Assembly: GCA_905250025.1 (NCBI GenBank)
Contig: CAJNOJ010000094.1
Coordinates: forward strand, 254,193-318,192
Reading direction: 5' to 3'
Source of the DNA: Adineta ricciae
Lineage: Eukaryota; Rotifera; Eurotatoria; Adinetida; Adinetidae
DNA length: 64,000 nucleotides
The notes below the pieces were generated by a model. That model had not been told where the DNA came from. It was given only the letters and a program-made list of their open reading frames with translations, and searched no databases. The position numbers and the translations under genes were made by a program. How positions within the stretch are numbered: the first letter of the stretch is position 1; every line of letters starts with the position of its first letter. Below are positions 1-18,942 of this stretch, piece by piece.

Positions 1-922
1 GCTGTACCATCGCCACCTGATTCTAAAACTAAATCATCCATTTCGTTTATGTTATAAAAAATAACAAGTATATTGATTTCAGTATGTCTTCTTACATCGC
101 TTCAAGCTGGTGCTTAATTTTTTAATTCCTTCATTTTTTTCCAATAAAGATCTGTTTAATTGTGCAATCCGACCTATATTTTCCCGTGAAAGGCTTTGCG
201 TGTCTTTATCATCATATTTCTTGTAGAGATGGATAATCCAAAAGCTTTCAGCGATAACAATTGCTAATAAAACCATCGATATCGAAATACATAACAATTG
301 ATATTTCTTCTCCTTTGATGATCCAACACTTTCCCCAAAGCAAAGTTTTCTCTTCACATATTCACCCGGTGCCATGCATTTGCTATTCAGGTTTTTGCCG
401 TTCCCTGTCATGCTCTCATAGTTGAAACCTTCGAAAATAAGCGCATCGAACACCGTTCATTTACATTGTTCGCTCTCTTTCTCTCGACTTACGTGTATTT
501 ACAGTTACTTTGTCGATATCCTCTTGATCATCGGTCAACGCCTCAAACTTTGAAGTCGTTTGTATTATCTGAGCTTCTGTCGACTCAGTCACAACTCCAG
601 TCGATCGTACTGACTGCATATATTCTAAACACAACAATCAAACATCTTACATCAATGTGCTCATCATACCTTGCAGATCTTTAGCTGGACCCATACAGTC
701 AATATCTCTGAATGCAGAGATCAACACTGTCACGTCGCTTTCGTTGATTTTGCCTTGATCAAACAACGATTGCCAGAGATCAAGAGTACCGTGGATTGTC
801 GTGTCATCTTGAATAGGTCGAGTAACAGTATCACCAAGAAGAAAATGAAGTCGTTTGCGAGATTCATTACTAAGACGATCGCCGACTTTCAGCAGAACTT
901 TTCTTAGGTCTTGATTATTCAT
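1..922 (-). CDS. DED-like transmembrane protein, copy 1 (partial, runs off left edge)
   Basis: Exons read at 670-922, 493-624, 96-428 and about 1-16; the 3' end lies beyond position 1. Exon 1 codes for a complete death-effector-domain-like fold: MNNQDLRKVLLKVGDRL opens helix 1, KRLHFLLGD matches the DED 'FL' region, and the LxLWQSLFDQGKI and DVTVLISAFRDI helices follow as in the first DED of caspase-8. Exon 2 is a polar linker. Exon 3 holds a KEKK stretch followed by one membrane span (about residues 173-197) and then a coiled-coil-like stalk. The basic residues before the span suggest N-in/C-out, with a cytosolic DED and an extracellular C-terminus. The few residues seen of exon 4 read CGDGT, so a cysteine-rich ectodomain probably begins here as in copy 2. 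A role in apoptotic or immune signalling is inferred from the DED only. Confidence 0.72.
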
Positions 923-1273
923 TAGATGTAGAGATTCAAATGGCTAATCTGAAAAGAAAACAGTCGATGATATAGAGGGAAAAGTAGATGATAGTGCTGG
1001 GAGATTTCGATGCAGTTGTACATTAGAAAATCTCGTCTATTGTAAATGAATACAGGAGAGGGTGTATGTGTGTTGTTTTTCTCTTGAAAAACATAGTCAG
1101 AGAGAAGAACACGAGGAAAATAGAGAGTAGGGCGATGAAGAATGACGCAGAAGAGACAGAACGAAAGAAAACAGTATTTTGCTAGTAGCATACCAAAACA
1201 GACAAACGCATATGAGTAATGGAGTGACACGAGGAAGAATCGTCACAAAAGCGGAGTAGAAAAAAGAACGAAA
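428..1273. repeat. Copy A of a near-identical duplicated block (partner 12427-13272)
   Basis: Offset is a constant 11,999 bases. Reading both copies side by side I count about six mismatches in 846 bp. The block covers exon 2, exon 1 and about 350 bp upstream of the start codon. Identity drops abruptly at about 1273, and on the other side falls to clearly diverged sequence within exon 3. Confidence 0.93.
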
Positions 1274-1893
1274 TACGATTTTGATCAAATAGTACCAGGA
1301 CAGAATGAGAACTAGAGTGATTAAAATAATAAAATTACAATGATACTACATAAAAGCCAGAAAATCCTACAATCGTCTGATTTCTCGCATTTTTCATTTT
1401 GAAGTTCGCTATAAATAAATAGGATCACTCATACACAAGTATTTGGTAACTGTAAAAATTTTAAAAAATGGAATAAATTCAATTCCAGGGACTGTGCTTT
1501 TATCGCTATGTTATCCATTGACATTTCATTCATATTATATTCTAACCTGATATGCTACGTTTTCACTTTGCATACGTCAGTCAATTCAATCCACGAGTAG
1601 TCAATACTGACTTTCCATAAGACATAATTTACGATTCACATTACGTCAAAAAACATTGATCAATCTGACGTCGCTCTGAACTGAACTGCATGTAAACCAA
1701 GATGCAAATTCTTCATAGTGAGAGTATCTATTACAATGCGATTTGTAGAGTACTGCACACACGACATCTTTTGAGTTTGTTTTTCACAGAACATTTGAGT
1801 AATTCTTCTTGTGAATATTGTTTTTTTGTTTTCATCATTCTTGGGTTTTTTTCCATACAACGCAGTACGTCAATTTCTTCAAGTCAATTCCAT
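1274..1893. other. Intergenic, no gene recognised
   Basis: AT-rich sequence between the divergently transcribed DED gene and the helicase gene. Small open frames on both strands (for example 1702-2007) have low-complexity translations, and the last one overlaps helicase exons 1-2 in another frame. It presumably holds both promoters. Confidence 0.6.
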
Positions 1894-3360
1894 ATGGCTC
1901 TGAATCTGGAAGACATGGTATGTCTTCTCCCAATGTTTCGTTTTACAAAAACGCTTTTGTTTAGAAGCGGACATCTCGATTCAATACGTTTTCATCGCGT
2001 GTCTTAGAAGAATTGCATCACTTTATTATTTATCCTCATCAGCGTGATGCTTTGTTGGCACTACGAACATGGTATAACAACGACTGTACTCGTATAGGTC
2101 TCGTTGTTATTCCAACAGGTGGTGGAAAATCAGGAATCGCTGTTCTTGCTCCGTATGTTCTGAATACCACTCGTGTATTAGTCGTAACACCATCATTACA
2201 GATAACGAATCAACTAGCCGCAGATTTCGGGTATGAAAATCGATTTCGAGTAGATTGAGAAAAAGAAGATTTTTCTGTAATTGATTTCAGACGACAACCA
2301 ACGAAAAGTTTCTATGTAAAACAAGGAATTGTGACTGGAGATGCAGCAGATATGTTCGTTGAGCCAGTTCGTATTGTGAACGAAGGACGAGATCTCGGAG
2401 ATCTGGCTGAGAATTTAGTTATCGTAAATGCGCATAAATTTGGAACAAATTCAAGTGTTGATTGGGAAAAACTGAATCAAAAAGCTTTCAATCTTTTAAT
2501 CGTTGATGAAGCTCATCATTTTCCCGCACCAACATGGAGCAAAATTGTCTCGCATTTCAAATGTAAAATTGTATTTCTCACTGCAACACCTTTTCGGGGA
2601 GGACAACCCATACTGGATAATCAAGATGGACGAATTTGTTTCGAAATTAGTCTAAACTCATTGATGAACAATGGAATCATTCGTCGAACACAGTTTCTAG
2701 AGATAGGAAATCATGTCGATTCAGGCGTTGAACGAATGCATGTGAGCAGATCGTGTATTTCCTCTCCGAACTTCATTTTTCTTTGATATTAGTTGCTGAG
2801 TAAAGAAATTCTCCGAATATTAGATAAACACGATCAATGTGATAACGTTGTTCAACACCAGGCAATGGTTCTCATGAAGGAAAAGAATGACACGACAAGT
2901 TTTGCTACACAACTCAATAAAATCAGCCCAAATAGCGCCGCGTCATATACAGGTGACACGAAGAATTCGAATTCTGTCCTTCAACGATTTGAAAATGGTA
3001 AACGAGAAGCTTAAGTTAAACTTATTTATGAATATGATACTTTTCGTAGGACAGCTTCGAGTTTTGGTCGTTTGTGGTAAACTTCTCGAAGGATACGATC
3101 GAAAACAAGTGAGTTTATGCGTTATCGCTCGGAACGTTCAACCGCAATCAAAGGTTTGTTCTTAGTTGGGATGAGACAGTGTCGTTAGGATATTCATTTA
3201 GGTTTTATTCACACAATTTGTTGGTCGTTGTCTGCGAAAAATTCGACCTGACGATCCAGTAGACGGAACAATTCTTACGCATGTGTTTTACAACCAAAGG
3301 CAAAATTACGAAAATCTGAACGAAATAGCAGAAGAGGATCCTGACGATGAGCAAGACTAA
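1894..3360 (+). CDS. Superfamily 2 DEAD/DEAH-type helicase, helicase core only
   Basis: Start ATG at 1894. Exon 1 is only 24 bp (MALNLEDM), followed by a GTATG...TTTAG intron, and five more exons lead to TAA at 3358-3360. The joined protein is about 400 residues. Motifs in order: a Q-motif-like YPHQRDALLALRTW, Walker A PTGGGKSG, motif Ib region VTPSLQITNQL, Walker B DEAH, motif III TATPFRGG, then a C-terminal RecA lobe with VLVVCGKLLEGYD and motif VI QFVGRCLRKIR. The pattern matches ResIII/type III restriction-subunit-like helicases and ATP-dependent nucleic acid unwinding. There is no nuclease, RNA-binding or protease domain and the tail is acidic (EEDPDDEQD). The substrate cannot be told from sequence. 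The family look is prokaryote- or phage-like, but the gene is spliced like its neighbours. Confidence 0.85.
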
Positions 3361-3421
3361 CCATTGAATTTGTACTGAATGTAATCGACAGCAGTGAATG
3401 TGTATTATTGCACTGTTTATT

Positions 3422-3427
3422 AATAAA
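3422..3427 (+). terminator. Poly(A) signal of the helicase gene
   Basis: AATAAA lies 62 bp after the helicase stop codon and just before an A-rich tract. Confidence 0.5.
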
Positions 3428-3483
3428 AAAAAGCTTAACGTTGAATAGAAAAGTGTAAATTAAAAAAAAAAGAAAAGATCAGA

Positions 3484-5087
3484 TCACTTTATTCCATTGG
3501 TGTATCGATTACGAAACTGTCGTCTTTGGAATGGTTTCTTTTGCTCCGTCATCGTATGATGATCGTGCTGCATGACTTGACCAGGAACTGGGCCATTCGG
3601 TGGCGGAGGAATTCGAAATGCTTCACTGGGTATTTTATCAACATTGAGATCCTAAACGCGAAATTGGATTTCTCTTGTTTTCATACAAACATCACCTACT
3701 TGATTTTCACTAAAATAATAATGTGGAGGTCCTGCACTTTGGCAAAACGGAACATCTAACAGATTATCGTCATTAACCCAATACATCATATAGAAATTGC
3801 ACATTTCGTCATCGCCAGTAGGACTAAACAGAATTCCAATAAATGCAAAAGCATCATCTCCGGAACGATAAACCTACCCGACTCGGACAACGTGTGATCT
3901 TGAATTGAACATTGTGCAAGCGATGGCGATGTAGTCACCTTTTTTAATTGTTAAATTACCATGAATTGGGTAGAACATTTGCGGTAATTGAGGTGAACGA
4001 CGACCGATTTCTCTCCATTCTTGTTCGTTTTTTTCACCGCGAACGCGATAAGCCGAATTGACTAGACCCAACTTGTGAGCGTGAACTCGAAATGCAAATG
4101 GATGCATTTCGATATTTTGTTCAATTTGACAAGCAGCTTCGAAGATCTCTGTGAAAAACAAAGAGCACAGCTTGGAATTGATTGCGTTTTATATTGATAT
4201 ACCTTCAGAATTCGGTTCGATTTGACCGCCAGTGCCGGCAAAAAAGACACCAGCGCGCTTAGGTGTACTAAAAGAATAAACAACAGATAAATATCATGTG
4301 TTTTCAGCTGGTTTAGTTACGGATTAGGCGTTGTTGTTAAAATCAAACCAGAGCGATCCGTTTGACCAGCTATCGAAAAGAATAACTTGAACAAATTTTA
4401 TCTTTAATCCCTCAATTACCTTTGAATTTATCAATATTAGCATAATGCACTTGTAAGACAAGGTATTTGATCGGTGTTGTCGCACCGATTTTGAACGCCA
4501 CATCTGAAACCCAATATTAAACAGCATCGACTCACATCGGCACTTTACCTTTTGGCAATTCAGTTTTATCAGCATCCAAAGCCCATGCATAGACAATCGT
4601 CGAGCCTGACGCACATGTTGGTCCTGTTTCATATTTATTCGATGCTGAATCCGATGCTTGAGACATTTCACCACAATTCCTAAAAAGTTTTAAATAGATC
4701 TTTGGAAAGGAAGTAATTGTTTACCGACCAAACTTTCTTCTCACTTCCGGGTTCTGTGCATCCATAAAGTAAAATATGATGCGCGTCGTTGGAAGTTGCA
4801 GATGGATTAAATGCCGCTAAAATCACCCATTGAAATCGATCTCTCTGATATGTAACCGTTCTTACTTATATAAACTGGCTTGTCATGATCCAATTCAACT
4901 GATGTACAAAGATAATCATCGACCTAAGAAACAATACTCGAAGTTTTCTTTAAATAGATGATGAACATTCTCGTACATGATTAGCAATAACATCAGGCAT
5001 AAGAACAGCTAATGTATTCGACGCATCTTCACTAGCGAAGCTGAGTAATATCGAGGAAAAGACAAGAATGATTGACAATAGCATCAT
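3484..5087 (-). CDS. Peptidylglycine alpha-hydroxylating monooxygenase (PHM)
   Basis: Copper- and ascorbate-dependent hydroxylation of C-terminal glycine in neuropeptide precursors, the first step of peptide amidation in the secretory pathway. The start MMLLSIILVFSSILLSFAS is a signal peptide. CuA ligands are seen in DAHHILLYGC (HH pair) and LQVHYAN (third His). CuB ligands are seen in FRVHAHKLG (HxH) and the Met of CTMFNS. DEMCNFYMMYW and other conserved Cys fit the two PHM lobes. The gene has about nine exons with short introns. It ends after the PHM core in a proline- and basic-rich tail (stop 3484-3486) with no lyase (PAL) domain, so the second amidation step must come from another gene. 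Start chosen as the first ATG before the signal peptide, about 45 bp downstream of a TATA box. Confidence 0.92.
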
Positions 5088-5131
5088 TCTTGGAAAATAC
5101 GAATTCTACGAGGATCGACAACAAGTCTTTG

Positions 5132-5141
5132 TATATATATA
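5132..5141 (-). promoter_or_regulatory. TATA box of the PHM gene
   Basis: TATATATATA read on the minus strand about 45 bp upstream of the PHM start codon. Confidence 0.55.
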
Positions 5142-5891
5142 GTCGAAAACAATCACGAATCAAATGCTTTCGCCGCAGACAACGATTTCATCTTTATTTT
5201 GTTTTCCTTTCTGTAATATATAGTTGTCGTTACTAACACAAACAGTTCTGGACAAAAACACATACGTGAAATGTAATTTGGTTGATATGTCACATTACTT
5301 ATTCAATGGAATAGTCTCACAGAATTCACCGAGTCAGACAAAAATTTATGATGATTACTACTTCACAGGTCACGCATGTTATATAATCAATATTGTATCG
5401 CTCGTATGATTATTCAGTTGGAAGGAGAAGGAGAGAATTCGTTGCTATTGAATCAATTCTAGAGCGAACAAGACTCATGTATATGCGTGTATTCGCTGAT
5501 CAGACGAACTAACGGTTAAAGAACAGGTAAAAAAAAGAAAGAGGTGAATTGGTCGAGCCAGATAAATCCTCATCGATGCTTCATTCTTATTCTGCAGCGT
5601 GTGTGCGTTTAGTAATAATATATGACATTTTATGATGTATGTGCACATTGACATTTGACCGCTTGACAAAGAAGAATGAATTAAGAAAGAAGAATTCGAT
5701 TTTACTTGTTACAAATTCTACTCGTATCGAATAATGGCATTATTAATCTTTTTTTCTATTATAGAGAATTATTATCAAAAGAACTATCTTCTGTGGCAAG
5801 CGCGTCTTCTCTCTCTCTCTCTCCTGTTCTTTGAGCATTATAGGACTTGGAAACGAATAGAAAAAGAGGAGATAAGAAACACGTTACAAGA
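5142..5891. other. Intergenic between PHM and the hexosaminidase-like gene
   Basis: No convincing gene. It contains a short CT run at about 5808-5823 just upstream of the hexosaminidase-like start. Open frames at 5224-5409, 5475-5669 and 5759-5971 lack family resemblance. Confidence 0.6.
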
Positions 5892-7790
5892 ATGATTCCA
5901 TTTCGACGGCTGACACATTCGTTGATCGTTGTTTTCGTTTTAAGCTTTGTACTCATTTTATCGGTATTCACGAAGATCTTCTTTCAAGCGGATCATCATC
6001 ACGTAAATGTAAGTATTTGAAAAGTACTTGAACTTTACCTCCGAACTTCTACTTCTAGTCTTCTCATTCCGCAATTGTTGAAAAGATTCTTGATCCGAAT
6101 GATCAACAGCTCGATGTCATTCAAATCGACAATCATCCATTAGCATTTTATGTTCATTTCGATCTGAAAGGTGCGGCACCGAAAGTGTCCTATTTCAAAA
6201 AGTTATTTCCTTTGCTGCATCAATGGGGCGTGAAAGGTATCTGCATGGAATACGAAGATATGTTTCCGTTCGATGGAATTGTCCGTTCGATCAAACACAA
6301 GCAAGCCTACACGAAAGATGATATCGAAACTATCAATCAATTAGCGAAAGACAATCGATTAGACGTTATGCCGCTACTACAAACTTATGGTAAAGATGAA
6401 AATCACCAGTGATCAGAAAGATCTCGTTGTTTTCTTTAGGACATTTGGAGTTTTTGTTGAAGTTGAACGAGTTCAGCGATTTGCGCGAGAATCCAAAATA
6501 TCCACAAGTGATAACGCCGTGCGTAGATCGAACGTATACTGTTCTATATTCGATGATTGATCAGTATTTAAAACTTCATCCTGACATTCGTTTCTTTCAT
6601 ATTGGTCATGATGAAGTTTATTATTTTCTAACGCATCCTGCTTGTGCAGAGTTTCAACGTGCAACTGGAATTCATAACCAATACGAACTATTCGCTTATC
6701 ATTTAAACAAAATTGTTAGTTATATCAAACAACGATCTCCAAACATTGAACTGCTCGTTTGGCATGATGTTTTGCAAAATTTAAATTTACAAATGCTGCA
6801 ACGGTATAACTTCCTCAATTCAATTCATCCGGTTCTCTGGTCATATCGTGAGGACATGCAAGTCGAAGGGTTCGTCATTGGTTCTCAAGCTGACCTCTTC
6901 GGACAATACAAATCACTGTGGGGAGCAACTGCATTCAAAGGAGCAACACATGAAATTGCCACGATTAGTGATGTGAAACATTACTACGAAAGTAAAGAAT
7001 AGTTTTAGCATCGTGCTGTTTATATTGCTTGGCATTTAGATCAAGTGTCTTGGATAAAGCAGCTGCAAATGTATCATCGAACAAAATGGCGAAATTTTCA
7101 CGGAGTTATTTTGACTGGCTGGTCGCGTTATGACCATTTTCTTTCCCTATGCGAGCTTTTACCTTATTCGATTCCGTCGATGTTATTTTCAATTGCCGCA
7201 TGGCACAAGCAATTTCAAAATCTTCCTCGGAATCAAAATATACCTCATCAGCTGCAAAACTACGTTCAACAGCAATTACAATGCTCATCAGCACTTCATT
7301 TGAATACTCAGGATCATTTTTCGACAAAACCGATACCGAAGTTAGTTTCACGTTTCTCACCTTATTTTATTTTGCTTGCTGATGTAGATGCCAATTTCCT
7401 GGGGCGGGTGTGTACGAATCAATGATTTCTTTGGGACGTATTTGGAACCAAGTTGAACAAGCAGAATCGTTCGTAAATAAATATGTTACTGATCTTCATG
7501 TAAAATACAATTACATTCATGTCAAGCGCGGAGAAGAATGCTTAGAAATCCTACGACCTGCGATTCATGCCTTACAAAGCTTTATTAACTTGTTTATTCA
7601 TTCTATGAATGAAGTTTTTCCTGAGCAAGTGGCAATTGAATGGCTTGAAACGTATTTTATGCAACGGTATAATTTAGTTCATCGCCGATATGAATTCATT
7701 CAACGTGCAGTTCGTGAACAGAAGTCATGGGGCACTCGGCCAATACCGAATATAAACAAACTAGAGGCGAATTTGACAAATGCGAGATGA
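5892..7790 (+). pseudogene. Hexosaminidase D-like (GH20) gene with two lesions
   Basis: The N-terminus MIPFRRLTHSLIVVFVLSF is a signal anchor. The next exons carry a GH20 catalytic barrel like hexosaminidase D (HEXD): HPLAFYVHFDLKG, WGVKGICMEYEDMFPF, and the catalytic Asp-Glu pair in FFHIGHDEV. Conserved landmarks FKGAT and [10 protein letters not shown] follow, and a helical C-terminal region ends at 7788-7790. Introns at 6010-6058 and near 6391-6438 join cleanly. Two defects follow. First, after DVKHYYE at about 7000 the frame meets two in-frame TAG codons inside GTAAAGAATAGTTTTAG before continuing as [10 protein letters not shown]. Second, at about 7400 (CTGGGGCGGG) one G appears missing, so the frame shifts between ANFLG and VYESMISLG. 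It is either a recent pseudogene or affected by assembly errors; coding flavour is intact elsewhere. Confidence 0.78.
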
Positions 7791-7906
7791 TACTTTTATT
7801 TGCAGAAGAAAATTTGTGATAAAAGTCTGTGAATTTTTGAAAATATTTTACGTTTTGAAATTATGTTTGTTTTGTGTATGAAAATATGCTTAGATAATGA
7901 TTAGAA

Positions 7907-8386
7907 TTAATATTTTCCTTGTGGTGTTGTTTCAGAGACGACTGTCGTGTATGTAGGAGGTGCATCCTCGCGCATGCAGTGAACAGGAACAGCTACTGGT
8001 CGACCAGTAGCAAAGTTATTAGTAAAAGAATGGACTTGATACACAGGCTGTCCAGGAGCTGGTGTAAAGACTGGAACTGCTTGTGGAACTCGTCGATTAT
8101 TGACAGTATTCAAGTGTATACAACAGCGTATACAGATTGATAGAATGACAATGCATGCCGAGACGATTCCGATAATTGCGTATGTTGGTAAACCGCGACA
8201 ATCTCCATAGTACGTGCCACAGGTTTGACCAGCTAACAAAGCATATTATTAAGAATGAATCCAGAAATACGAGTCGAACTTACAATAGCAATAATATGAG
8301 CTGTAACCGCTGTAACACCAGTCAGCAGATATTGCACTGATGGATGATAATAGGATAAACAAAGTGAAACTTTTTGATCGAAACAT
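7907..8386 (-). CDS. Small Cys-rich single-pass protein with PPxY tail (Shisa/VOPP-like)
   Basis: Two exons joined by a GTAAGTTC...TTTGTTAG phase-1 intron give about 140 residues. It has a signal peptide (MFRSKSFTLFILLSSISA), a short Tyr/Cys-rich ectodomain (WCYSGYSSYYCYSG then TCGTYYGDC), one membrane span (YAIIGIVSACIVILSICI) followed by RCC, and a Pro-rich cytosolic tail ending DAPPTYTTV near the C-terminus. The layout resembles Shisa, VOPP1 and WBP1 adaptors, whose PPxY motifs bind WW domains of NEDD4-type ubiquitin ligases. That partner is inferred. The longer open frame at 8233-8427 in another frame is a shadow of exon 1. Confidence 0.7.
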
Positions 8387-8900
8387 GCTTTAATTGCGAC
8401 GTGATGTTTATCTTGGAAGTGAAGCAAAATAGCTGAGAAGATCTTTGATTAAATAGAGACCGATATGATGTCATTGATAAGACGGAGCAAACAGGATTTT
8501 TTTCGCGTTACTACGATAAATGTGAGTCAGAATTCTAAGCATTAGAGATGTGTCCACGTGTGTCAGAAAAAAGCGAAATGTTCGCTATTTAGAATCGAGA
8601 TACAGGTATACGTAATAAGAGTATCATTCCGGTTGCTTTTTTGACATGAGTGCATTTTGAAGAACGGCCGAAATACTTCATCGTATCTCAATTCTGATGC
8701 ATCATAAAAGCAGCGTTTTCAATCTGTCATCAAGTTTTTCAAACATCATATTCTTTATTGCAACTTCGTAACAACGAACAATTCCACATGACTGGTTTAA
8801 AACAAAGTTGATACGAGGATTTACAATATTGTCATGCTCGAAGTAATTCATTGTGTTGTATTCACATCTAGTTACATTCTTTTCACTCGAAAATCGTATA
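8387..8900. other. Intergenic between two minus-strand genes
   Basis: Promoter and 5' UTR of the PPxY protein plus the 3' end of the DED gene. Part of a minus-strand open frame (8702-8989) reads across the true stop of the DED gene in another frame. Nothing else is supported. Confidence 0.55.
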
Positions 8901-10041
8901 TCATGAACAGATACAAGTGTATCCATCGCCACAAATTCCACCGCATTTATGAGCGTACGTTCGACACCACTGATCGCAAGTACATGCATGGCCTAAAACC
9001 ATACGAGATATCAATCAAAAGACTCTGGTTACATTGATTTACCTTACCGATAGAATCATATGGAATAAATTCATTGCGACAGACACATGCATGACCATCA
9101 GCACACACTCCAAATGATGAATTGCGTTCCTTACACCATTGTTGACAACCACATGTCGATCCTTCGGTAAACTCTAAAGTAAAAAATGTTTATTTTTGAG
9201 AAAAATGCGCGTATCTTGTTGTATTCTTCACTCGAACGTTCTTTGTCATCATCGAATCTTTTCTGTGGAATTGCAGATGTACTTAGTTGAGGAATATCTT
9301 CCGTATTTCCCCACCGATGACTATTCGAATTATTCGCATTCCGATGATTCATCATTTGACCAAGTTTTACATGAAGACATACTATCCATACACACTCAAC
9401 AATAGCGATTATCAATAGAATTAACAATATGATATTCCATGGTAATTTAGACACTTGCGTCTTCGCACAAGAATGATATGATTGTTCAGAATGTGCGAGA
9501 AGTTTTCTCTGTATATTATTTACAGGTATCGTTGGTATATGATCAATACAATCATTTTTATTATTCATTTCATCGACAAGTTCTAAATGACATATCTTCA
9601 ACTTTTCACACGCATGGCTAAAAACCACTTACTAGTCCTGATCGTGACGTGATCTTCGTCATCTTGCATCAATCGATCGATGAGCGATGGCATGAGTTCC
9701 GATAGACTTCGTGTTGGTTCATTCGTATTATTCATATGTGCTAGAAAAGAACTCAATTGTTAATCAATTTGCCTCCTTAAGCATTTACCTCGTAGACATC
9801 GGGCAGCATCAAAGCATCCGATCTGTTCGAATGCTCTAATCAGCAATGTCACATCAGTTGGAAGAATCTTTTCTTGATCGAACAAGCTTTCTAAAAGACT
9901 AAGAGTTCCACCAAGTGATTGATCATCTCGAATACGGCGAGGGACATCATCAGCAAGAAAGAAATGGAGACGTTTTCGATCGTCATCACTAAGACGATCT
10001 TGAAGATTTAGGAGTATTCCACGCAAACGGAGATTATCCAT
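8901..10041 (-). CDS. DED-like transmembrane protein with two defensin-like modules
   Basis: Exon 1 (9789-10041) is 253 bp, the same length and phase as in the two sister genes, and encodes the DED-like fold (KRLHFFLADDVPRR, TLSLLESLFDQEKI, DVTLLIRAFEQIGC). Exon 2 is 9633-9740. The third coding block (9232 to at least 9453) has the membrane span NIILLILLIIAIVECVWIVC. Exon 4 (9048-9173) carries CGCQQWC, GVC and CVC; exon 5 (8901-8992) carries CTCDQWC, GGIC and CIC and then the stop. Both fit CxxxC...GxC...CxC, the cysteine-stabilised alpha-beta pattern of defensins, with an unusually short first loop. Splicing between exons 2 and 3 is uncertain. The strong donor at 9632 and the obvious acceptor 15 bp later do not keep frame; a join to 9453 does and gives about 266 residues, but skips open sequence resembling sister exon 3. 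A frameshift there is possible. Confidence 0.68.
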
Positions 10042-10971
10042 TGAACAGCTAGCTCATAATATTGTAAATATCTGAGAATCAAAGGATAGAATGCATACTT
10101 TGTGTCGGTAGAAAAAAAAACACAATATTGACCGTCTATTGAAAGGTATTATTCATAAATATGTACTCGAATGCATGAAACGTCTATACTCTCAGAATAA
10201 TTCGATATAAAAATCAACATGCTGTCGTCCAATCAACGAAAATTTCAAGCGATGACAATACTACAATGTGAAAAAATGTATTATTGTCAACAAATGGCAA
10301 CTAGAGGTCTGGAGAAAAGTAAGTCACATAGAAATTCACAGAGAAAAACTAATTATATCGACGTGGTCTTTAATGGTTAACATCTTTGTTATTCACATGG
10401 ATACGAAAAACCTGAAGGTGATGGTGAGGATGCTTGAAGATTTTTTTTAGATTATGACAAAGACCCCTGCCATCTACAGATGTTTACTTTAATTTGTACA
10501 CAGGTAGAAGCCACATAAGTGTTTTTCAGAAAGTTATTTTTGTTCGGGGAAAAATCGACAAAGCAATTCTCATGCGTATTTTTTCAGTCCTAAAGAAAAT
10601 CAAAACACAATTGTTTGTCAAGCCAAACAGTTGAAAATACGTTTACTCTATGGCGCAAAAAGCGACCAGGTAATTCTGGGTGTTTCCGTTTATTTCTCAA
10701 CTAATGATCTTTGATACTAATCACATGAAGAAGCTATTTGTCACGCAACTAATATATAAACAAAATGTCGAAAGACAGTGTCGATGTTTCAATACGCATT
10801 CGAAAAATCCGACAGTGTTAACCGTATTTTTCTAAGGAGGATATAAAATGTACTGAGAAAAGATCAAAATAAGTGCGAGCCGTCTTAGAGCATGTATCGA
10901 TTCGATCACCGAGCATTTGATTTTCAAGATTTGAATTCATTGTAACTTGTTCGTTCCATAGAAAGATTCAA
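10042..10971. other. Intergenic with possible orphan exon fragments
   Basis: Mostly featureless. Plus-strand pieces flanked by splice-like sites occur at about 10450-10502 (YDKDPCHLQMFTLICTQ before GTAGAAG) and about 10588-10669 (PKENQNTIVCQAKQLKIRLL region, before GTAATTC). They may be relics of a gene continuing into the broken B-box gene, but I do not recognise them. Confidence 0.3.
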
Positions 10972-11442
10972 ATGACATATGACGAAAGAGAAACACTAAC
11001 CTCACGTCGAATTTGTGCTGAATGTTAAAAGAAACCACCGCAAGTTCAGTGTCTCCATTGTTCACAATTCGTCTGTCTTGAATGTGCTCAGAAACATGTC
11101 AATTTAGTGGCATTAGAAAGCGAAGGTGCAATGCATTTCTTAAATGAGAAACTTGATATTCTTGACCAGATCGCTGCCATCACTCGACAGAAGATAATGC
11201 AGGAGCGTGATATGATTGTACGGTATGCAGATGAAGAACGTGATCGATCGTTTATGCAATTGGATCGAATGATCGACGTAGAAAAACAACAAGTGCGTTA
11301 TAAAAGTCAAGAATTGAATGCAATCCCGGTGTATATTCGAGAATTAAAAGCTGAACTTCAATATTTAATTACCGAAAAAAACGATTTAATCAATGTTAGT
11401 AGTACAGCAACGTGGCTCACAGCGGAAATTTGTTTAAGATGA
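10972..11442 (+). pseudogene. B-box zinc finger / coiled-coil (TRIM-like) fragment with premature stop
   Basis: From ATG 10972 the frame reads a B-box-like finger: RRICAEC, then CLHC, then CLECAQKH, giving the C-x2-C...C-x2-C...C-x2-C-x2-H spacing. An in-frame TAA at 11026-11028 falls directly after the first CAEC. Downstream a coiled coil runs from NEKLDILDQIAAITRQ to about ELQYLITEKND and stops at 11442. There is no RING, NHL or SPRY domain. Without the stop it would be a B-box plus coiled-coil adaptor of the TRIM kind. No intron that removes the stop is evident. It sits between two DED receptor-like genes. Confidence 0.6.
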
Positions 11443-11831
11443 CGACGACAACATTTTCAAATGAATTCATTTTTGCACGAGCTCGTGCTTTCCTTTCGAG
11501 CAACATTTGTAATCTAATTCGCTGCTGTATGGAGCAAACGTTACTGATTTTTCTTATGCAGCAATTTTCCATACGATCATAACATAAAAGTATCAGTGAA
11601 AATGTGTAGCTTTTATACTTCAGCAAGATCATACGTCATTCTCTTTTACGAAACGTACAAGTTCAGTCTGACATGCTTTCATTTGATTAAACTAAACAAG
11701 TTCATAATACAAAAAAGAACAAATTAAGTTTCTATAAAACTCCCTGGACATTTTGTCTATTATATATAAGTAAATTTACATTTCAATCTTTCATTATTTT
11801 TGGATTTCGTTGAGCACATATCTCGTGTTCT
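11443..11831. other. Intergenic
   Basis: AT-rich 3' flanks of the B-box fragment and of DED copy 2, which converge here. No gene recognised. Confidence 0.55.
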
Positions 11832-12921
11832 TCATCGCTCACCGTCTGAAAGTAGAACAAAACTATAGGGTGATTTTGGCACTAATACAGGTTTCCTTTA
11901 CCGTACAGATTACCACTTTGTCGGTTTTCGTCACATTTACAGTGCCCATCTGATACCCCAGTCCAATAGTGACAAAATTTATTGGTACCAGAGCAGCACT
12001 TCGAACCCCCGCCTTCCAACCCTAAAATCAAGTCATTATTTTCATTAATGTTATCTAATATACCAAATATAATAATTCAAGCATGTTTTCTTACACCATG
12101 AGACGTTTGTATTTAAACTTTCCATTTCTCTTTCTTTTTCCAGTAAAGATCTGTTTAATTGTGCAATCCGATCTATATCTTGCAATAAATGATTCCGCGT
12201 ATGTCTACCATCATATTTTATATACAACCAACAAATCCAAATACTTTCAATAGTGATAATTGCTAATAAAACCATCGATATTGAAATACATAACAATTGA
12301 TATTTCTTCTCCTTTGATGATCCAACACTTTCCCCAAAGCAAATTTTTCTCTTCACATATTCACCCGGTGCCATGCATTTGCTATCTAGATGTTTGTCGT
12401 TCTCCATCATGCTCTCATAGTTTAAACCTTCGAAAATAAGTGCATCGAACACCGTTCATTTACATTGTTCGCTCTCTTTCTCTCGACTTACGTGTATTTA
12501 CAGTTACTTTGTCGATATCCTCTTGATCATCGGTCAACGCATCAAACTTTGAAGTCGTTTGTATTATCTGAGCTTCTGTCGACTCAGTCACAACTCCAGT
12601 CAATCGTACTGACTGCATATATTCTAAACACAACAATAAAACATCTTACATCAATGTGCTCATCATACCTTGCAGATCTTTAGCTGGACCCATACAGTCA
12701 ATATCTCTGAATGCAGAGATCAACACTGTCACGTCGCTTTCGTTGATTTTGCCTTGATCAAACAACGATTGCCAGAGATCAAGAGTACCGTGGATTGTCG
12801 TGTCATCTTGAATAGGTCGAGTAACAGTATCACCAAGAAGAAAATGAAGTCGTTTGCGAGATTCATTACTAAGACGATCGCCGACTTTCAGCAGAACTTT
12901 TCTTAGGTCTTGATTATTCAT
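11832..12921 (-). CDS. DED-like transmembrane protein with Cys-rich ectodomain, copy 2
   Basis: Five exons are inferred: 12669-12921, 12492-12623, 12095-12427, 11902-12021 and 11832-11845. They sum to 852 bp and 283 residues, and all four introns are phase 1. Exon 1 is the DED-like domain, identical to copy 1 at protein level. Exon 2 is the linker. Exon 3 has the basic KEKK stretch and a membrane span ending in WICWLYIKYD. Exon 4 is a compact cysteine module with the order CC, six residues, C, ten residues, C-x-C (SKCCSGTNKFC then HCKC). Exon 5 adds a few residues before TGA. Topology is inferred as cytosolic DED and extracellular cysteine module. The stalk and ectodomain differ from copy 1 although DED and linker are almost unchanged. 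Confidence 0.78.
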
Positions 12922-13272
12922 TAGATGTAGAGATTCAAATGGCTAATCTGAAAAGAAAACAGTCGATGATATAGAGGGAAAAGTAGATGATAGTGCTGGG
13001 AGATTTCGATGCAGTTGTACATTAGAAAATCTCGTCTATTGTAAATGAATACAGGAGAGGGTGTATGTGTGTTGTTTTTCTCTTGAAAAACATAGTCAGA
13101 GAGAAGAACACGAGGAAAATAGAGAGTAGGGCGATGAAGAATGACGCAGAAGAGACAGAACGAAAGAAAACAGTATTTTGCTAGTAGCATACCAAAACAG
13201 ACAAACGCATATGAGTAATGGAGTGACACGAGGAAGAATCGTCACAAAAGCAGAATAGAAAAAAGAACGAAA
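12427..13272. repeat. Copy B of the duplicated block (partner 428-1273)
   Basis: About 99% identical to 428-1273 over 846 bp, including non-coding DNA upstream of the start codon. Homology ends sharply at about 13272, after which the two upstream regions are unrelated. Confidence 0.93.
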
Positions 13273-13757
13273 CTATTTTTACAGAGGAGAGTACGAGCGT
13301 AAAATGAGAACTACACTAATTGGAGTACCATACCATATATTATCAGAACAAAACGTGAAAAAGAAATTGGATTTTACATTTTTAGAAAACTCAAAAAAAA
13401 GCGGACAACTTTTTTCGTAGTCTTTCACTTTCTTTCTATTTCAACATTTGAATTAGTCTCCAATTTCACATCTATTTTCGTGATACTTGTTGTCGAACAG
13501 ATATGAATAATGTATGAGAAAGAAAACTTTCCCATGAAATTATAAAACTTGCAGAACGCTGTGTATGTAACAGGTAGATAGTTTCGGAATGAATCATATC
13601 TATAAATATCTGTCTATAAGTCATCCATGGGAGATTTCAATAATTTCCCTTTCGATAAAACTAACACAGATATGTTTGAATCATGATACGAAGAATCTTT
13701 TCGTAGGAATTTTATTGGCAAACTAATTATTAAAAAAAGAGTATCTTCAAGTTTGTC
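13273..13757. other. Intergenic
   Basis: Unrelated to the flank of copy A. AT-rich, no gene recognised. Confidence 0.6.
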
Positions 13758-14930
13758 CTATTTATCGTTGAGTCTATTGTATTTTCTTAATATTTGTTTT
13801 AAAGTTTCATGCGATAATGCATCGACTTTTAGTCCTTTATATCCAATCATTGTTTCTGCTGCTATCATCGAATTCACAATTGCTTCTTCAACGCATTGAA
13901 TTGTTGCCTCAAATAACGGATTCATCGCGTCATTGATCATGAATTCTGCTTGTTTTGTCGTTGTTGTTTGGTTGGAGAACTCAGCTGTTGAGAATGCTAA
14001 GAATATCTCCCCAGACGAATCTCCAGCAATGCCTCCAAGTCTTGCTATCCCAAGTGAAGCACGGACGGCTAAACGTTTGAGTTGATGCGGTAACAAAGGT
14101 GCATCAGTTGCAATAATAACAATAATCGAACCGACATCTTTGTCCGGAACTTTCGTGTTCACTCTTTCCATTTCTAAGATTTCTTCGCCCACAGGAATAC
14201 CGGCGATAATTAATTGTTTTTTTCGTCCAAAATTCGACTGTACTAATACTCCGACTGTATAATTCAATTCTGGAATTACCCTTGAACTTGTTCCTGTTCC
14301 TGCTTTAAACCCGAATGTCATCATTCCAGTTCCACCACCCACATTGCCTTCTAGAACCGTTGTTCCCGAACCTTTCGCATTCTCTAGTGCTTCGAAAACG
14401 TGTTCTTCCGTCACATGAAATCCATGGATATCATTCAAGAATCCATCCCACGTTTCGGCAACCACTGGTAAACTTGAATCGACAATATTGCCCGTCTGAG
14501 GGATGACATTTTTCTTAACGAACCATTTCATTAATGATTGATGGCAAATTCCAACCGCATTTGTATTCGTAATCAAAATCGGTGTTGTTAGAAAACCGGA
14601 TTCGGTCAGCCAATGAATTCCTGTCATTTCACCATTACCATTCAAACTAAACCAGTTGGCAAAACAGAGCTCGTTGTTTAAAACTCTTTCCGGTGCACGC
14701 GGAAAGATTGCTGTGACACCTGTTCGTACAGAATCGCCTTCGATAATCGTACTAAATCCAACCTCGACCCCTTGAACATCAACGATCGAGTTCGATTTAC
14801 CCGGAACGCCACTAAACGGAATGCCTAGATCACGAGCACGAGGCTTAGCTTTGTCCGAAGTACTCGACATATTCGCATCAACGTAATAGAATGACAAGAA
14901 GAAGAACAGATTTACAACTTTGGTTATCAT
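13758..14930 (-). CDS. P1/S58-family peptidase (DmpA / L-aminopeptidase D-esterase type)
   Basis: Single uninterrupted exon of 390 residues. After a hydrophobic leader (VVNLFFFLSFYYV) the mature part opens RARDLGIPFSGVPGKSNSIV, the usual S58 N-terminus. Conserved blocks are GVTAIFPRAP, ITNTNAVGICHQ, EGNVGGGTGM, and KDVGSIIVIIATDAPL with the Gly267-Ser268 pair where these enzymes self-cleave to free the catalytic serine. RLGGIAGDSSGEIF near the C-terminus fits the family's GGxxGxxSGD-like block. Members cleave N-terminal residues from peptides. The family is mainly bacterial and fungal; the absence of introns and the added leader suggest acquisition by transfer and export from the cytosol. Start chosen at the first ATG, about 32 bp from a TATA box. 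Confidence 0.93.
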   Translation of the reverse strand: MITKVVNLFFFLSFYYVDANMSSTSDKAKPRARDLGIPFSGVPGKSNSIVDVQGVEVGFSTIIEGDSVRTGVTAIFPRAPERVLNNELCFANWFSLNGNGEMTGIHWLTESGFLTTPILITNTNAVGICHQSLMKWFVKKNVIPQTGNIVDSSLPVVAETWDGFLNDIHGFHVTEEHVFEALENAKGSGTTVLEGNVGGGTGMMTFGFKAGTGTSSRVIPELNYTVGVLVQSNFGRKKQLIIAGIPVGEEILEMERVNTKVPDKDVGSIIVIIATDAPLLPHQLKRLAVRASLGIARLGGIAGDSSGEIFLAFSTAEFSNQTTTTKQAEFMINDAMNPLFEATIQCVEEAIVNSMIAAETMIGYKGLKVDALSHETLKQILRKYNRLNDK

Positions 14931-14961
14931 ATTTGCACTTTATGACCATCGTTATCTGCAA

Positions 14962-14970
14962 ATATATATA
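14962..14970 (-). promoter_or_regulatory. TATA box of the S58 peptidase gene
   Basis: TATATATA about 32 bp upstream of the start codon on the minus strand, a normal spacing for a very short leader. Confidence 0.5.
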
Positions 14971-15080
14971 CATAGTCTTGTTGATAAACTTTGCCTACTA
15001 CTTAACGATTTCTTTTAACATTTGTGTGATACATCCTTGTGATTTATTTTAAAAAAATACATTTCACATCAAGGTTATTT

Positions 15081-15995
15081 TTAAAGAAGAGTGTGGTATT
15101 GATTTGTTTCGTTATTTTGTTGCAGACATAATTTAGTTAAGAACTGAAGTTTGCGATGAATCACCGCTTGTTTAAGTTGATTTTTCTCTAGAGCTTCTTT
15201 CAACGAATCGATCTGTTCTTCCAACTGATGTTGATTTGCCAACATGCGCGTTTGGATCAGTAAATGAAATTGTCGCCATTGTTTTTCAAATTCATTCAAT
15301 GTAATAGATGCATTCGGACTGGAAAACTGCTCGGACGAATTTGATAAGGTTTGAGAGGAGAGATTTTGCGAAATCAAATGATAAATTTTATGATGACCTA
15401 AGCGTCGAGCTAATTCAATGGGCAATTCATGTCGACCATTTCGAATATTCAACGAAGCATCAGCATGAATCAATATTGCTGTACAGCCTGCATGTTTATA
15501 ACGAATAGCAGAATGCAATGGTGTATCGCCATCACGATTGACTGGATTTAAATTCGCACCAGCATAGATTAACAGTCGGCAACATTCATTATGACCGAAT
15601 TTACAAGACATATGTAATGGAGTATTGTTATCATAGTCGAAATGATCGACATGAGTTTCATACTCGAGAAGGAGAGTTAAGATTTGACTGTAACCATAGG
15701 CAGCCGAAACATGTAGGCACGTTTTACCATCTCGATCGTAGAGTGAAGTGTTAACTCCTTCTTTTAACAAACGTCGTACTACTTCGGTATGGCCGAGGTA
15801 AGTTGCCGTATGGAGAAGTGATCGTCCATTTAAGGGATCGATTGAACTGATCGAATAACCAGCACGAATGAGAATTTGCAATGTGTGTGGATCGTTGGCT
15901 TGCACTGCGGCAAGAACAGGATCTCCGTGTCCATCAGTTGTTGCTGATAGTGGTTGAAGAATTGATTTGAGTTGTGAATCGAATGCAGTCGACAT
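15081..15995 (-). CDS. Ankyrin-repeat protein with C-terminal coiled coil
   Basis: Intronless, 304 residues. Five to six ankyrin repeats span about residues 25-205; typical cores are GRSLLHTATYLGHTEVVRRL, GKTCLHVSAAYGYSQILTLL, NTPLHMSCKFGHNECCRLLI and GDTPLHSAIRYKHAGCTAIL. After a Ser-rich spacer, residues about 230-290 form a predicted coiled coil (LEEQIDSLKEALEKNQL). The repeats mediate protein-protein contact. There is no death, kinase or DNA-binding domain. The repeat block resembles IkB/BCL3-like proteins only in a general way, so no specific partner is named. Confidence 0.88.
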   Translation of the reverse strand: MSTAFDSQLKSILQPLSATTDGHGDPVLAAVQANDPHTLQILIRAGYSISSIDPLNGRSLLHTATYLGHTEVVRRLLKEGVNTSLYDRDGKTCLHVSAAYGYSQILTLLLEYETHVDHFDYDNNTPLHMSCKFGHNECCRLLIYAGANLNPVNRDGDTPLHSAIRYKHAGCTAILIHADASLNIRNGRHELPIELARRLGHHKIYHLISQNLSSQTLSNSSEQFSSPNASITLNEFEKQWRQFHLLIQTRMLANQHQLEEQIDSLKEALEKNQLKQAVIHRKLQFLTKLCLQQNNETNQYHTLL

Positions 15996-16663
15996 AATTC
16001 AATGTCGTGTATTGCATAAGAATGGTTTCAGTTTTTTTTTTTCATCATTATTATTGGGGACAGAGGAGGACAAAGATGAAGATTGAAACAGAACGTAACA
16101 TATTTGTCAATGTCGTTCTTTTCAAGTAGAGACACTTATATGTAAAAAAAAGGTTCGTTTCTTGTACGAAACGAAAAACTTTGTCGAAGTTCCAATGACA
16201 TTGAAGTATGAATCTATCCTGTATATGTTCTTCTTGATTATGACCTGAAGAAATTGTGTTGTAGATAGAACGAGATGTCTGAGCATGAATTTTAACACTG
16301 ATGAAAACGATCAACAACAGTTCCGATAAATCAGTTTATCAATCTTTCGCCTCTGTTCAAGCTTTTCTTCTTCCTTCCACGATAGTTATGTCAATATACG
16401 CTCTTTTCTTTTCCTTTACTCGTAATTATTCTTATTTGTGTTGGTCGGTAGTAAAGAAAAAGAAAATTTTATTTGTCTGCTTAATGTCAGCTCGACGAAT
16501 TCTTTTTTCTAAGATTCTCCGATGAATAAAGGTAAAAAAGCCCACAAAAACAATTATCGATCGGGCGTACCTTTTTATACGCTAAGCGAAATAAAAAAAT
16601 GTCATTCTTCCTTTTTCTATCAAATTCTACAACAGCAGGTACACTTGACTTCTCCACCTCAAG
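15996..16663. other. Intergenic (divergent promoters)
   Basis: Shared upstream region of the ankyrin and NAD synthetase genes. A T9 tract lies near 16033. Open frames here have no recognisable content. Confidence 0.55.
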
Positions 16664-17522
16664 ATGCAAGCGGAAAAGGTCGCTGATCATATCACTCAAT
16701 GGCTCAAAGATTATCATCAAACTAGTCATACAAAAGGCTTTGTTGTCGGTGTTTCCGGTGGAATCGATTCGGCTGTTGTATCAACACTATGTGCTCGCAC
16801 CGGCTTGCCTGTCTTAGTTATGGAAATGCCTATTCGACAGTCAGCGAATGAAATACGTCGAAGTCATGCGCATATTAATTGGTTGAAGTCAACATTTCCG
16901 AATGTACGCGCGGGTGAGGTCAATTTAACTGAGGTCTTCGAAACATTCCAAGCAACAGTCAAAAACAATGAATTGAACGAAACAAATTCTGCTACCGACA
17001 TCGCATTTGCCAATATGAGATCTCGATTACGAATGGTAAAGAACTTCTTTTCATGACAAAAAATTATTGTTCTATGTTCAGGTTAACTTGTATTACTTCG
17101 CGTCGATCAACAACTATCTCGTTGGTGGTACAGGGAACAAAGTGGAAGACTTCGGTGTTGGATTTTTTACGAAATATGGCGATGGAGGAGTTGATATTAG
17201 TCCAATAGCTGATTTATTGAAGTCGGAAGTACGTGCTGTTGCTGCTGCGCTGGGTGTTTCGAATGAAATCATTGCGGCACCACCTACTGATGGTTTGTTC
17301 GGAGATACACGAACTGATGAAGATCAAATCGGAGCAAGCTATGATGAATTAGAATGGGCGATGAATTATATAGATTCAGATAGAGCAAAACAAGATGCGA
17401 CAGCATTGACCGAGAGAGAAAAGAAAGTTCTGGAGATTTACAATCAACGACACACAGCAAATTTGCATAAGATGGTTGAAATCCCTCGTTGTATCATTCC
17501 AAAAGAGTTAAAAGGTCAATAA
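16664..17522 (+). CDS. nadE: Ammonia-dependent NAD(+) synthetase (bacterial NadE type)
   Basis: Final step of NAD synthesis: deamido-NAD plus ammonia and ATP gives NAD. Two exons, with a 46 bp intron GTAAAG...GTTCAG at 17037-17082. The pyrophosphate-binding loop is VGVSGGIDSAVV. ANMRSRLRM then continues across the splice as VNLYYFASINNYLVGGTGNKVEDFGV, as in the NH3-utilising enzymes. DISPIADLLKSEV and PPTDGLFGDTRTDEDQIG are further signatures. At about 270 residues it matches the bacterial length, and there is no N-terminal glutaminase domain of the usual animal NADSYN. A bacterial origin with later intron gain is inferred. Start chosen at the ATG giving the usual short N-terminal helix. Confidence 0.93.
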
Positions 17523-17650: not shown

Positions 17651-18640
17651 CTAACGTTCAGCTCTTTTCTCTGCCGATTTCTTTACAGGCACAACCGTAG
17701 CGGTCGGCGATATTCGTATGTGGCGGTGTTTGTCTAATGACACAAAATTGACACAAGCAACAACGGGTAATGATAATGTCACACAATAAGTTGCGGTAAA
17801 TAAATATATTTGAATGCCAAAATCGACTGCTGGATCTTTGCCTTGAACCATCTGTACGAATGTAATGATAATCATTGGTAAATGAAGAAAGACATAAACA
17901 GCGGAGACAGATATCAATTGCATTGACATTCGCCGATGTTTTCGCCATTGAATCGGTTGTCTCAGTCGTTTCTTCTGACGAATTATTCGATAGAGTAAGG
18001 CGACGTTAAATGTAACAATAATCAATGTCGGAAAGACATTGTTAACAATCGTATCCCATATCGTGATGAAATTCATCGCGACATAACAAGGCGATGAGCC
18101 ACATTGAAGATCGGTGAAATCAAATAAGTTTTCACACGGCGGGAAGACTAAAACGTTTGTATGGAAACTAAATAGGTAAATTATGATAATCAATGGTGGT
18201 AAATAATGCAAGAGAAATTTTTGTTTTTGTGTCGTGATGTATCTGCTGTGAAAGATTAATAAATGACGTTCAATCGATGCCCATGCAAGAATGAAAGCTT
18301 GGATATTGTACAAACTATCATCAATCACCCACCACGTCAAGCAGAAACTCGTGGTTGGTATCGGGGGAGGTCCGACTTGATAGAGACTGATCAACATCCA
18401 GAGAACATCGGTAAAGATTAAAATAACGTTGGTCATGATTAAAAAGAGAATACTGTGATTGTGTAAACCATGACGCATTTTCCGATTGGATAAGAAACAG
18501 TAAATGGTAAAAGTTGAACAAATCAATGATAGGCCAGCGAATATAAGTAGAAGCCAGAATTGCAGAGTAGTTGAGAGATCGGGAGTATCCATTTCTCCTA
18601 CTCTGAGTTGATGTGAACGATTTAGTTTTATGGGTAGCAT
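17651..18640 (-). CDS. Orphan rhodopsin-like GPCR 1
   Basis: Intronless, 329 residues, seven membrane spans. TM1 is FWLLLIFAGLSLICSTFTIY, TM2 includes ILFLIMTNVILIFTDVLWML, and TM3 ends in ASIERHLLIFH, where ERH replaces the DRY box. TM5 is FPTLIIVTFNVALLYRIIRQ followed by a basic third loop, and TM6 carries SVYAVFLH-type helix residues. Cys in TM3 and loop 2 could form the usual disulfide. The ligand is unknown. It converges tail to tail with nadE, about 128 bp apart. An alternative start at MDTPDLS (about 18592) would shorten the N-terminus. Confidence 0.85.
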   Translation of the reverse strand: MLPIKLNRSHQLRVGEMDTPDLSTTLQFWLLLIFAGLSLICSTFTIYCFLSNRKMRHGLHNHSILFLIMTNVILIFTDVLWMLISLYQVGPPPIPTTSFCLTWWVIDDSLYNIQAFILAWASIERHLLIFHSRYITTQKQKFLLHYLPPLIIIIYLFSFHTNVLVFPPCENLFDFTDLQCGSSPCYVAMNFITIWDTIVNNVFPTLIIVTFNVALLYRIIRQKKRLRQPIQWRKHRRMSMQLISVSAVYVFLHLPMIIITFVQMVQGKDPAVDFGIQIYLFTATYCVTLSLPVVACVNFVSLDKHRHIRISPTATVVPVKKSAEKRAER

Positions 18641-18942
18641 TTTTGCTATTGTGCGTAATCGTAAATCAGATAAAAGTTCATCAAATAACTAGTTTGACGT
18701 ACGAACTCATCTGCCTTTTCCCCCCGTCAAGTAAACAGGAATCCGAGTATTTTACTTGGAAGATATGCGAAAAGGTTCAATCAGAAAACCTCACGTTTAT
18801 TTGAGAACTGAAATCAAATTACAACCTTTTCTTTCTAAGTCTCTAAACGCCTTTGTACCATGTTCTTGTTTATGTTCGAAATGAATAGATCTCATCATTA
18901 TAATACTTGAGAACAGTCACGACCAACTAGTCGTGACAAAAG
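18641..18942. other. Intergenic
   Basis: Promoter side of GPCR 1 and 3' flank of the GNAT gene. Nothing else seen. Confidence 0.5.

What the first reader, a model, noticed from the sequence alone, without database searches (positions are those of the whole stretch)
8901..10041. Death-effector-domain membrane receptors with cysteine-rich ectodomains
Seen in sequence: three genes here pair a DED-like domain with one membrane span and a small Cys-rich C-terminal module. Established: DED proteins (FADD, caspase-8, cFLIP, PEA-15) are mostly cytosolic adaptors recruited to death receptors. A receptor that itself carries a DED and a small disulfide-rich outside head would bypass the adaptor. Inference: a direct extracellular-sensor to DED signalling family, perhaps immune.
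Basis: partly seen in the sequence, partly recalled or inferred. Interest (0 to 1): 0.88.

Follow-up and report, generated by a model that had tools for sequence, protein, structure and literature searches.

The report
DED receptors with defensin-like heads
In a microscopic bdelloid rotifer, this gene appears to encode a cell-surface protein with a cell-death/immune signalling domain inside the cell and two small defensin-like modules outside, one of a family whose members carry different outside parts.

Summary
At 10041-8901 (minus strand) a five-exon gene encodes a 309-aa protein: death effector domain (DED, residues 7-78), one predicted membrane span (171-189) and two six-cysteine modules (245-269, 281-309). 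A public Adineta ricciae protein contains the whole model; Adineta vaga and one unnamed database protein keep the same order. Two neighbouring genes share the plan with a shorter Cys-rich tail.

Of 46 DED matches in the genome, 32 were read as DED plus ectodomain (31 with a predicted span between): 11 jacalin lectins, 8 NHL propellers, 3 TPR, 2 DM9, 1 GH18 chitinase-like, 2 double-module, 4 five-Cys tails, 1 other. Eleven are unresolved. All organism names shown for homologues are bdelloids. The modules resemble peptides of the same genome that look secreted.

Best reading: a type II membrane sensor family feeding DED signalling, perhaps immune. Topology, signalling and ligand are inferred. 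None of the 32 has the RxDL motif I recall as classical, and no DED-caspase or FADD-like gene was found. Predicted DED membrane receptors are known from oyster, so: new variant of a known kind.

The parts
9789..10041 (-). Exon 1: start codon and death effector domain (residues 1-84; PF01335 match at 9808-10023)
9633..9740 (-). Exon 2: linker, cytosolic if the topology is as inferred
   Evidence: pN 0.024, pS 0.257 against the C98 counterpart
9232..9582 (-). Exon 3: linker, single predicted membrane span (residues 171-189, about 9433-9377) and stalk
   Evidence: AF2 helix at pLDDT about 97
9048..9173 (-). Exon 4: first six-cysteine module (residues 245-269), pattern C-x-C-x3-C-x8/9-G-x-C-x5-C-x-C
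8901..8992 (-). Exon 5: second six-cysteine module (residues 281-309; a seventh Cys in this copy) and stop codon
9043..9047 (-). Five bases between two competing exon-4 ends (9048 or 9043); the longer form would put exon 5 in another frame. Public annotation and the A. vaga protein match the shorter form
11832..12921 (-). Neighbouring paralogue (copy 3), 283 aa: exons 12921-12669, 12623-12492, 12427-12095, 12021-11902, 11845-11832 (last two placed by hand); DED, one predicted span, tail with five Cys
   Evidence: DED exon 35.3 bits
1..922 (-). Neighbouring paralogue (copy 1), runs off the left end of the window: exons 922-670, 624-493, 428-96, then from 28 leftwards; DED, one predicted span, five-Cys tail
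   Evidence: 93% identical over 1,256 bases to the copy 3 region

Best explanation
The gene encodes a type II single-pass membrane receptor. The N-terminal DED is in the cytosol; two tandem six-cysteine, probably CS-alpha/beta (defensin-like) modules are outside. It belongs to a bdelloid family in which one DED-linker-membrane cassette is joined to different ectodomains (jacalin, DM9, NHL, TPR, GH18, in A. steineri also GH16, and Cys-rich modules). Most likely mechanism: an ectodomain binds a surface ligand, probably a microbial or self glycan or peptide; receptors cluster; the clustered DEDs nucleate assembly with other DED proteins of the cell and start a defence or cell-death response without a separate receptor-adaptor step. 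SHOWN by sequence: gene structure, DED homology, ectodomain classes, conservation, similarity of the modules to peptides that look secreted. PREDICTED: the span. INFERRED: topology, disulfides and fold of the modules, ligand, clustering, signalling partner, immune outcome.
For: Spliced model equals part of public protein P0001. DED: 27 of 27 exons match PF01335; their profile's best PDB hits are caspase-8 (E 2e-8), then cFLIP and FADD, and the 25 best of 37 hits at E<=1 are DED proteins. Domain order kept in A. vaga and P0003, with all twelve motif cysteines; a partial A. steineri protein, P0048, shows the double module but not the DED part. Receptor family: 32 of 46 DED matches; 25 of the 32 carry a Pfam-recognised ectodomain. 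Topology: no hydrophobic leader in the first 45 residues (best 19-residue mean -0.34; 0.55 in the longer P0001); N-glycosylation sequons after the span 91 against 67.7 +/- 7.3 in shuffles, linker 33 against 30.4 +/- 4.7, DED 3 against 7.1 +/- 2.5; Lys/Arg in the 15 residues before the span 80, after it 65, in 22 non-redundant models. DED exon pN 0.010, pS 0.135. The modules match a two-module peptide gene on C682 (E 1.7e-4 to 0.002 for one genome) with hydrophobic leader, dibasic site and acidic tail.
Confidence: 0.6

Rival explanations
1. Tethered antimicrobial effector: the double module is a membrane-held, perhaps shed, defensin-like peptide, and the DED only controls its placement or release.
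For: The modules match peptides with hydrophobic leader, dibasic site and acidic tail. The finding's own stalk has a dibasic pair at 228-229, 16 residues before the first module Cys, and P0003 has two in its stalk.
Against: The receptor modules are near neutral (net -2 to +1 in 8 modules), while 5 of the 7 secreted-type modules listed are +4 to +6, counting dibasic residues. The A. vaga stalk has no dibasic pair. 25 of 32 receptors carry lectins, propellers, repeats or a glycosidase instead.
Confidence: 0.17
2. Organelle-membrane regulator: the DED proteins sit in the ER or another internal membrane and dampen death signalling by binding DED proteins, like BAR or BAP31 (recalled), with luminal heads in another role.
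For: DED plus span is compatible; no surface localisation is known. Loss of exact RxDL in all 32 receptors could mean a decoy or non-nucleating DED.
Against: Diverse lectin, DM9, GH18 and NHL heads point to exposure to varied ligands rather than one luminal role; inference.
Confidence: 0.15
3. Developmental or self-recognition receptor, not immune: the ectodomains read endogenous glycans or the animal's own module peptides.
For: The secreted-type module peptides are candidate endogenous ligands or competitors; glycan-binding folds do not imply microbes.
Against: Expansion with ectodomain replacement (10 changes of class on the DED tree, 7 the least possible) is more typical of defence genes (general knowledge).
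Confidence: 0.15
4. Gene-model artefact: the DED exon and the membrane and Cys-rich exons belong to separate transcripts.
For: No transcript was seen here; two exon-4 ends compete (9048, 9043); public annotation may be automatic and its 5' end differs.
Against: Public annotation of A. ricciae, the A. vaga protein and P0003 all join DED, span and double module; canonical introns; coding constraint in the model frame; a first exon of 253 or 256 nt in 23 of 32 receptor models.
Confidence: 0.03

Closest known systems
Crassostrea virginica Cys-rich ectodomain-TM-DED-TRADD-N proteins (Kaur et al. 2021, PMC8195603; section 10 and search passages read)
   Same: Predicted membrane proteins with Cys-rich ectodomain and an intracellular DED; lineage-specific expansion of about 50.
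   Different: There the outside and the DED-TRADD-N unit are constant and the intracellular C-terminus varies; here DED and span are constant and the ectodomain varies, the DED is N-terminal (type II order), and Pfam found no TRADD-N at E<=1.
Vertebrate death receptors (TNFR superfamily) with FADD and caspase-8
   Same: Cys-rich ectodomain, one span, death-fold signalling.
   Different: Those are type I with a cytosolic Death domain and use FADD as adaptor (recalled; also introduction passages of PMC8195603). Here the DED itself is on the receptor and no TNFR repeat passes the cut-off.
Amphioxus direct-connector receptors such as TNFR-caspase (PMC2575513, passages read)
   Same: A predicted shortcut that fuses ectodomain and death-pathway domain in one membrane protein.
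   Different: Caspase rather than DED inside; TNFR outside; other phylum; cDNA support is reported there.
CS-alpha/beta defensins and related toxins
   Same: CxxxC...GxC...CxC cysteine order; helix-strand-strand in two AF2 models; related genes look like peptide precursors.
   Different: First two Cys only one residue apart; no significant family match; here fused to span and DED.
DED-bearing RIG-I-like receptors of lophotrochozoans (PMC8998645, passages read)
   Same: DED grafted on an innate sensor; A. ricciae also has DED-helicase genes on C210.
   Different: Cytosolic nucleic-acid helicases, not membrane proteins.
Rotifer secretory lectin survey (PMC8878817, passages read)
   Same: Surveyed A. 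ricciae among six rotifers, including jacalin domains.
   Different: It required secretion and excluded proteins with transmembrane regions; the passage seen reports a single protein with a canonical jacalin domain, in Didymodactylos carnosus.

Membership tests
Death effector domain (DED) proteins | Sequence match to the DED family | tested here: met
   27 of 27 DED exons given match PF01335; PDB profile hits caspase-8, cFLIP, FADD. The finding's own copy is under the curated cut-off.
Death effector domain (DED) proteins | Six-helix death fold | tested here: inconclusive
   AF2 gives five helices in the DED at block pLDDT 76-84, with a stretch at 56-58 between the second and third; structural comparison did not single out DEDs.
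Death effector domain (DED) proteins | RxDL motif near helices 5-6 (recalled) | tested here: not met
   Finding reads CFDA; of 45 DEDs read, 38 have Cys in place of Arg, 3 exact RxDL (one C210 helicase DED, C173, C128), 3 R-x-D with another last residue, 1 neither. Not required by the Pfam family.
Death effector domain (DED) proteins | Homotypic DED interaction or assembly | not testable with these tools
   Needs biochemistry.
TNFR-type death receptors | TNFR Cys-rich repeats outside and Death domain inside | tested here: not met
   Full-length Pfam scan at E<=1 lists DED, not Death or TNFR; modules show only a sub-threshold TNFR_nem match, best E 0.42.
CS-alpha/beta (defensin-like) peptides | Six Cys in the order C..CxxxC..GxC..CxC | tested here: met
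   All six invariant in 8 of 8 aligned modules.
CS-alpha/beta (defensin-like) peptides | Helix-strand-strand fold with three disulfides | tested here: inconclusive
CS-alpha/beta (defensin-like) peptides | Antimicrobial or channel-blocking activity | not testable with these tools
   Needs assay.
Oyster-type TM-DED-TRADD-N proteins | TRADD-N domain next to the DED | tested here: not met
   Not among Pfam matches of the 309-aa protein at E<=1; a distant TRADD-N could be missed.
Type II membrane receptor | N-terminus in the cytosol, C-terminus outside | tested here: inconclusive
   No hydrophobic leader, sequon excess over shuffles after the span and mild Lys/Arg bias before it favour it; sequon density is as high in the linker. 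No topology program was run.

The most novel reading that the evidence does not exclude
Bdelloid rotifers have rebuilt cell-surface immunity around the DED: one DED-span cassette is combined with swappable glycan- and peptide-sensing heads, including a membrane-tethered relative of their own defensin-like peptides, and it signals through DED-only partners (possibly soluble DED proteins and DED-carrying RIG-I-like helicases) rather than through FADD and DED-caspases.
Probability: 0.25. Interest if true: 0.88.

Novelty: new variant of a known kind. Interest (0 to 1): 0.72.

Why it matters
Bdelloids are long-lived asexual animals, and how they sense pathogens is, to my knowledge, largely open. 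A receptor family that couples varied ectodomains straight to a DED would give concrete candidate sensors, and a natural test of whether DED clustering at a membrane suffices for signalling when RxDL is replaced. The similarity between a receptor head and defensin-like peptides offers a testable origin for a receptor ectodomain.

Full report
WHAT IS THERE. The window lies in a 130-Mb assembly (G000, contig C94). The public protein identical to the gene is from Adineta ricciae, a bdelloid rotifer, on a contig of the same length. On the minus strand, exons 10041-9789, 9740-9633, 9582-9232, 9173-9048 and 8992-8901 join through four introns of 48-58 nt, all GT-AG and phase 1 by exon length, into a 309-aa protein. 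My simple splice scorer prefers an exon 4 that is five bases longer, but the public annotation and the A. vaga protein match the shorter one.

CONSTRAINT. Window 2-15160 has a 91-93% identical counterpart on contig C98. The finding against its C98 counterpart: pN 0.010 and pS 0.135 in the DED exon, pN 0.085 and pS 0.103 in the span and stalk exon, pN 0.040/0.027 and pS 0.117/0.053 in the two module exons; over all, ratio 0.36 in the model frame and 0.82 and 0.80 in the other two. Numbers per exon are small: in exon 5 alone (3 differences) the frames cannot be told apart. The counterpart keeps the six motif Cys in each module; the seventh Cys of the finding's second module is Ser there.

THE SPAN AND TOPOLOGY. 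One hydrophobic span at 171-189 (mean Kyte-Doolittle 3.25), an AF2 helix at block pLDDT up to 98; 3.61 in P0003 but only 1.92 in A. vaga. No hydrophobic leader in the first 45 residues, which favours N-inside; no signal-peptide or topology program was available. I tested 25 of the 32 receptor models (five Cys-type models, C822 and the spanless C481 model left out), 22 after near-identical pairs were removed: N-glycosylation sequons after the span 91 (shuffles 67.7 +/- 7.3), in the linker 33 (30.4 +/- 4.7), in the DED 3 (7.1 +/- 2.5). Per 100 residues this is 1.29, 1.57 and 0.16, so the raw density does not separate linker from outside; only the excess does. Flanking Lys/Arg: 80 before, 65 after; 10 of 22 models lean that way, 4 the other, 8 tie. 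Supportive, not decisive.

RELATED PEPTIDES THAT LOOK SECRETED. Searching the genome with each module found, besides the finding and its C98 counterpart, two places on C682 and two on C746, each with two modules in a row (12 matches, 9, at E<=10; a C16 match is unexamined). The C682 gene read (L064) encodes a hydrophobic leader, two modules, a dibasic site and an acidic tail; it is contained in public protein P0042, uncharacterised and 33 residues longer at the start, with relatives P0043-P0047 of broadly the same plan. Net charge by Lys+Arg minus Asp+Glu is -2 to +1 in 8 receptor modules (A. steineri P0048 included) and -1 to +6 in 7 modules of this type, counting dibasic residues; tails are -3 to -9 in 5 proteins. 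They look like antimicrobial-peptide precursors; activity is unknown. Both C746 places show a stop codon in one module.

THE FAMILY. I read the 46 DED loci with a simple gene model and gave 29 of the 89 exon pieces listed to Pfam. Result, recounted: 11 jacalin, 8 NHL, 3 TPR, 2 DM9, 1 GH18 with CBM5/12, 2 double-module (finding and counterpart), 4 five-Cys tails (window copies 1 and 3 and two on C98; for C98:186758 the tail was found by pattern, not by a spliced model), 1 other Cys-rich tail (C822): 32 in all, 31 with a predicted span between DED and ectodomain (none predicted in my C481 model). 3 matches lie in two DED-helicase genes on C210; 11 are unresolved. The first exon is 253 or 256 nt in 23 of the 32. 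In the protein database, 41 homologues and 126 with a profile, 120 listed, include A. steineri proteins with GH16 (P0062, P0064); the organism names shown are all Adineta or Rotaria. Many entries have no name, and the search only reaches relatives that share short words. The DED tree needs 10 changes of ectodomain class (7 is the least possible; shuffled mean 22.3), with well-supported branches forcing at least two for jacalin and for NHL; long branches and low support at many forks make this rough.

PARTNERS. 81 caspase-domain and 23 Death-domain matches were found in the genome. Of 61 DED candidates at E<=10, the nearest caspase match on the same contig is 11.9 kb away and the nearest Death match 159 kb. 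So no DED-caspase and no FADD-like gene is apparent; diverged or intron-split DEDs could be missed.

MECHANISM. Most likely: ligand-driven clustering at the membrane brings DEDs together, which recruit other DED proteins (C173 and C128, whose DEDs keep RxDL but whose gene models are unresolved, or the DED-helicases), giving a defence or death output. The first half follows from anatomy; the partners are a guess. The finding's stalk has a dibasic pair 16 residues before the first module Cys, so release of the head is also possible. Alternatives are listed with my odds.

COMPARISON AND NOVELTY. Predicted TM-DED receptors with Cys-rich ectodomains exist in oyster (PMC8195603), and direct-connector receptors in amphioxus (PMC2575513); DED-RLRs are known in lophotrochozoans (PMC8998645). 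The rotifer lectin survey excluded membrane proteins (PMC8878817), so it would have passed over this family. What is new as far as the held library and what I read of it show: a bdelloid family with a constant DED-span and a changeable ectodomain, and a head related to defensin-like peptides. I rate it a new variant of a known kind.

Noticed in passing
L009 (G000:C210:19500-29499): Two adjacent genes with N-terminal DEDs (two DEDs in one, one in the other) followed by helicase sequence (DEAD/ResIII matched in the second; the one post-DED piece of the first gene given to Pfam matched nothing): they look like RIG-I-like receptors with DED in place of CARD.
   Followed up: partly
L064 (G000:C682:25600-26700), ORF 208-672 minus: Two-module Cys-rich peptide precursor: hydrophobic leader, modules, dibasic site, acidic tail; a second copy of the modules lies 3.2 kb away.
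   Followed up: partly
L065 (G000:C746:19000-19900) and C746:25004-25250: Two further two-module copies, each with a stop codon inside one module; they look degenerate.
   Followed up: no
window 23-1273 and 12022-13272: Direct duplication, 93% identical over 1,256 bases, containing the two five-Cys paralogues; their DED exons encode identical proteins.
   Followed up: partly
window 1-15160: Homologous block on contig C98 at 91-93% identity, as expected of bdelloid homologous chromosomes.
   Followed up: partly
window 13758-14939, 15081-15998, 16649-17522, 17651-18688, 6400-7002, 2259-2786, 18943-19722: Neighbouring ORFs by Pfam: peptidase S58, ankyrin repeats, NAD synthase (two pieces), rhodopsin-family 7TM receptor, GH20, ResIII helicase piece, GNAT acetyltransferase; two further ORFs given (11029-11439, 7910-8245) matched nothing.
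   Followed up: no
L019 and L020 (C100 and C216), about 2 kb downstream of the DED exon: A second, weakly DED-like exon (E 0.15 and 0.35) followed by a 307-aa exon in both, perhaps a further diverged receptor.
   Followed up: no
P0049 (Rotaria sp. Silwood1): The same Cys module joined to a ricin-type lectin domain in a short protein.
   Followed up: no
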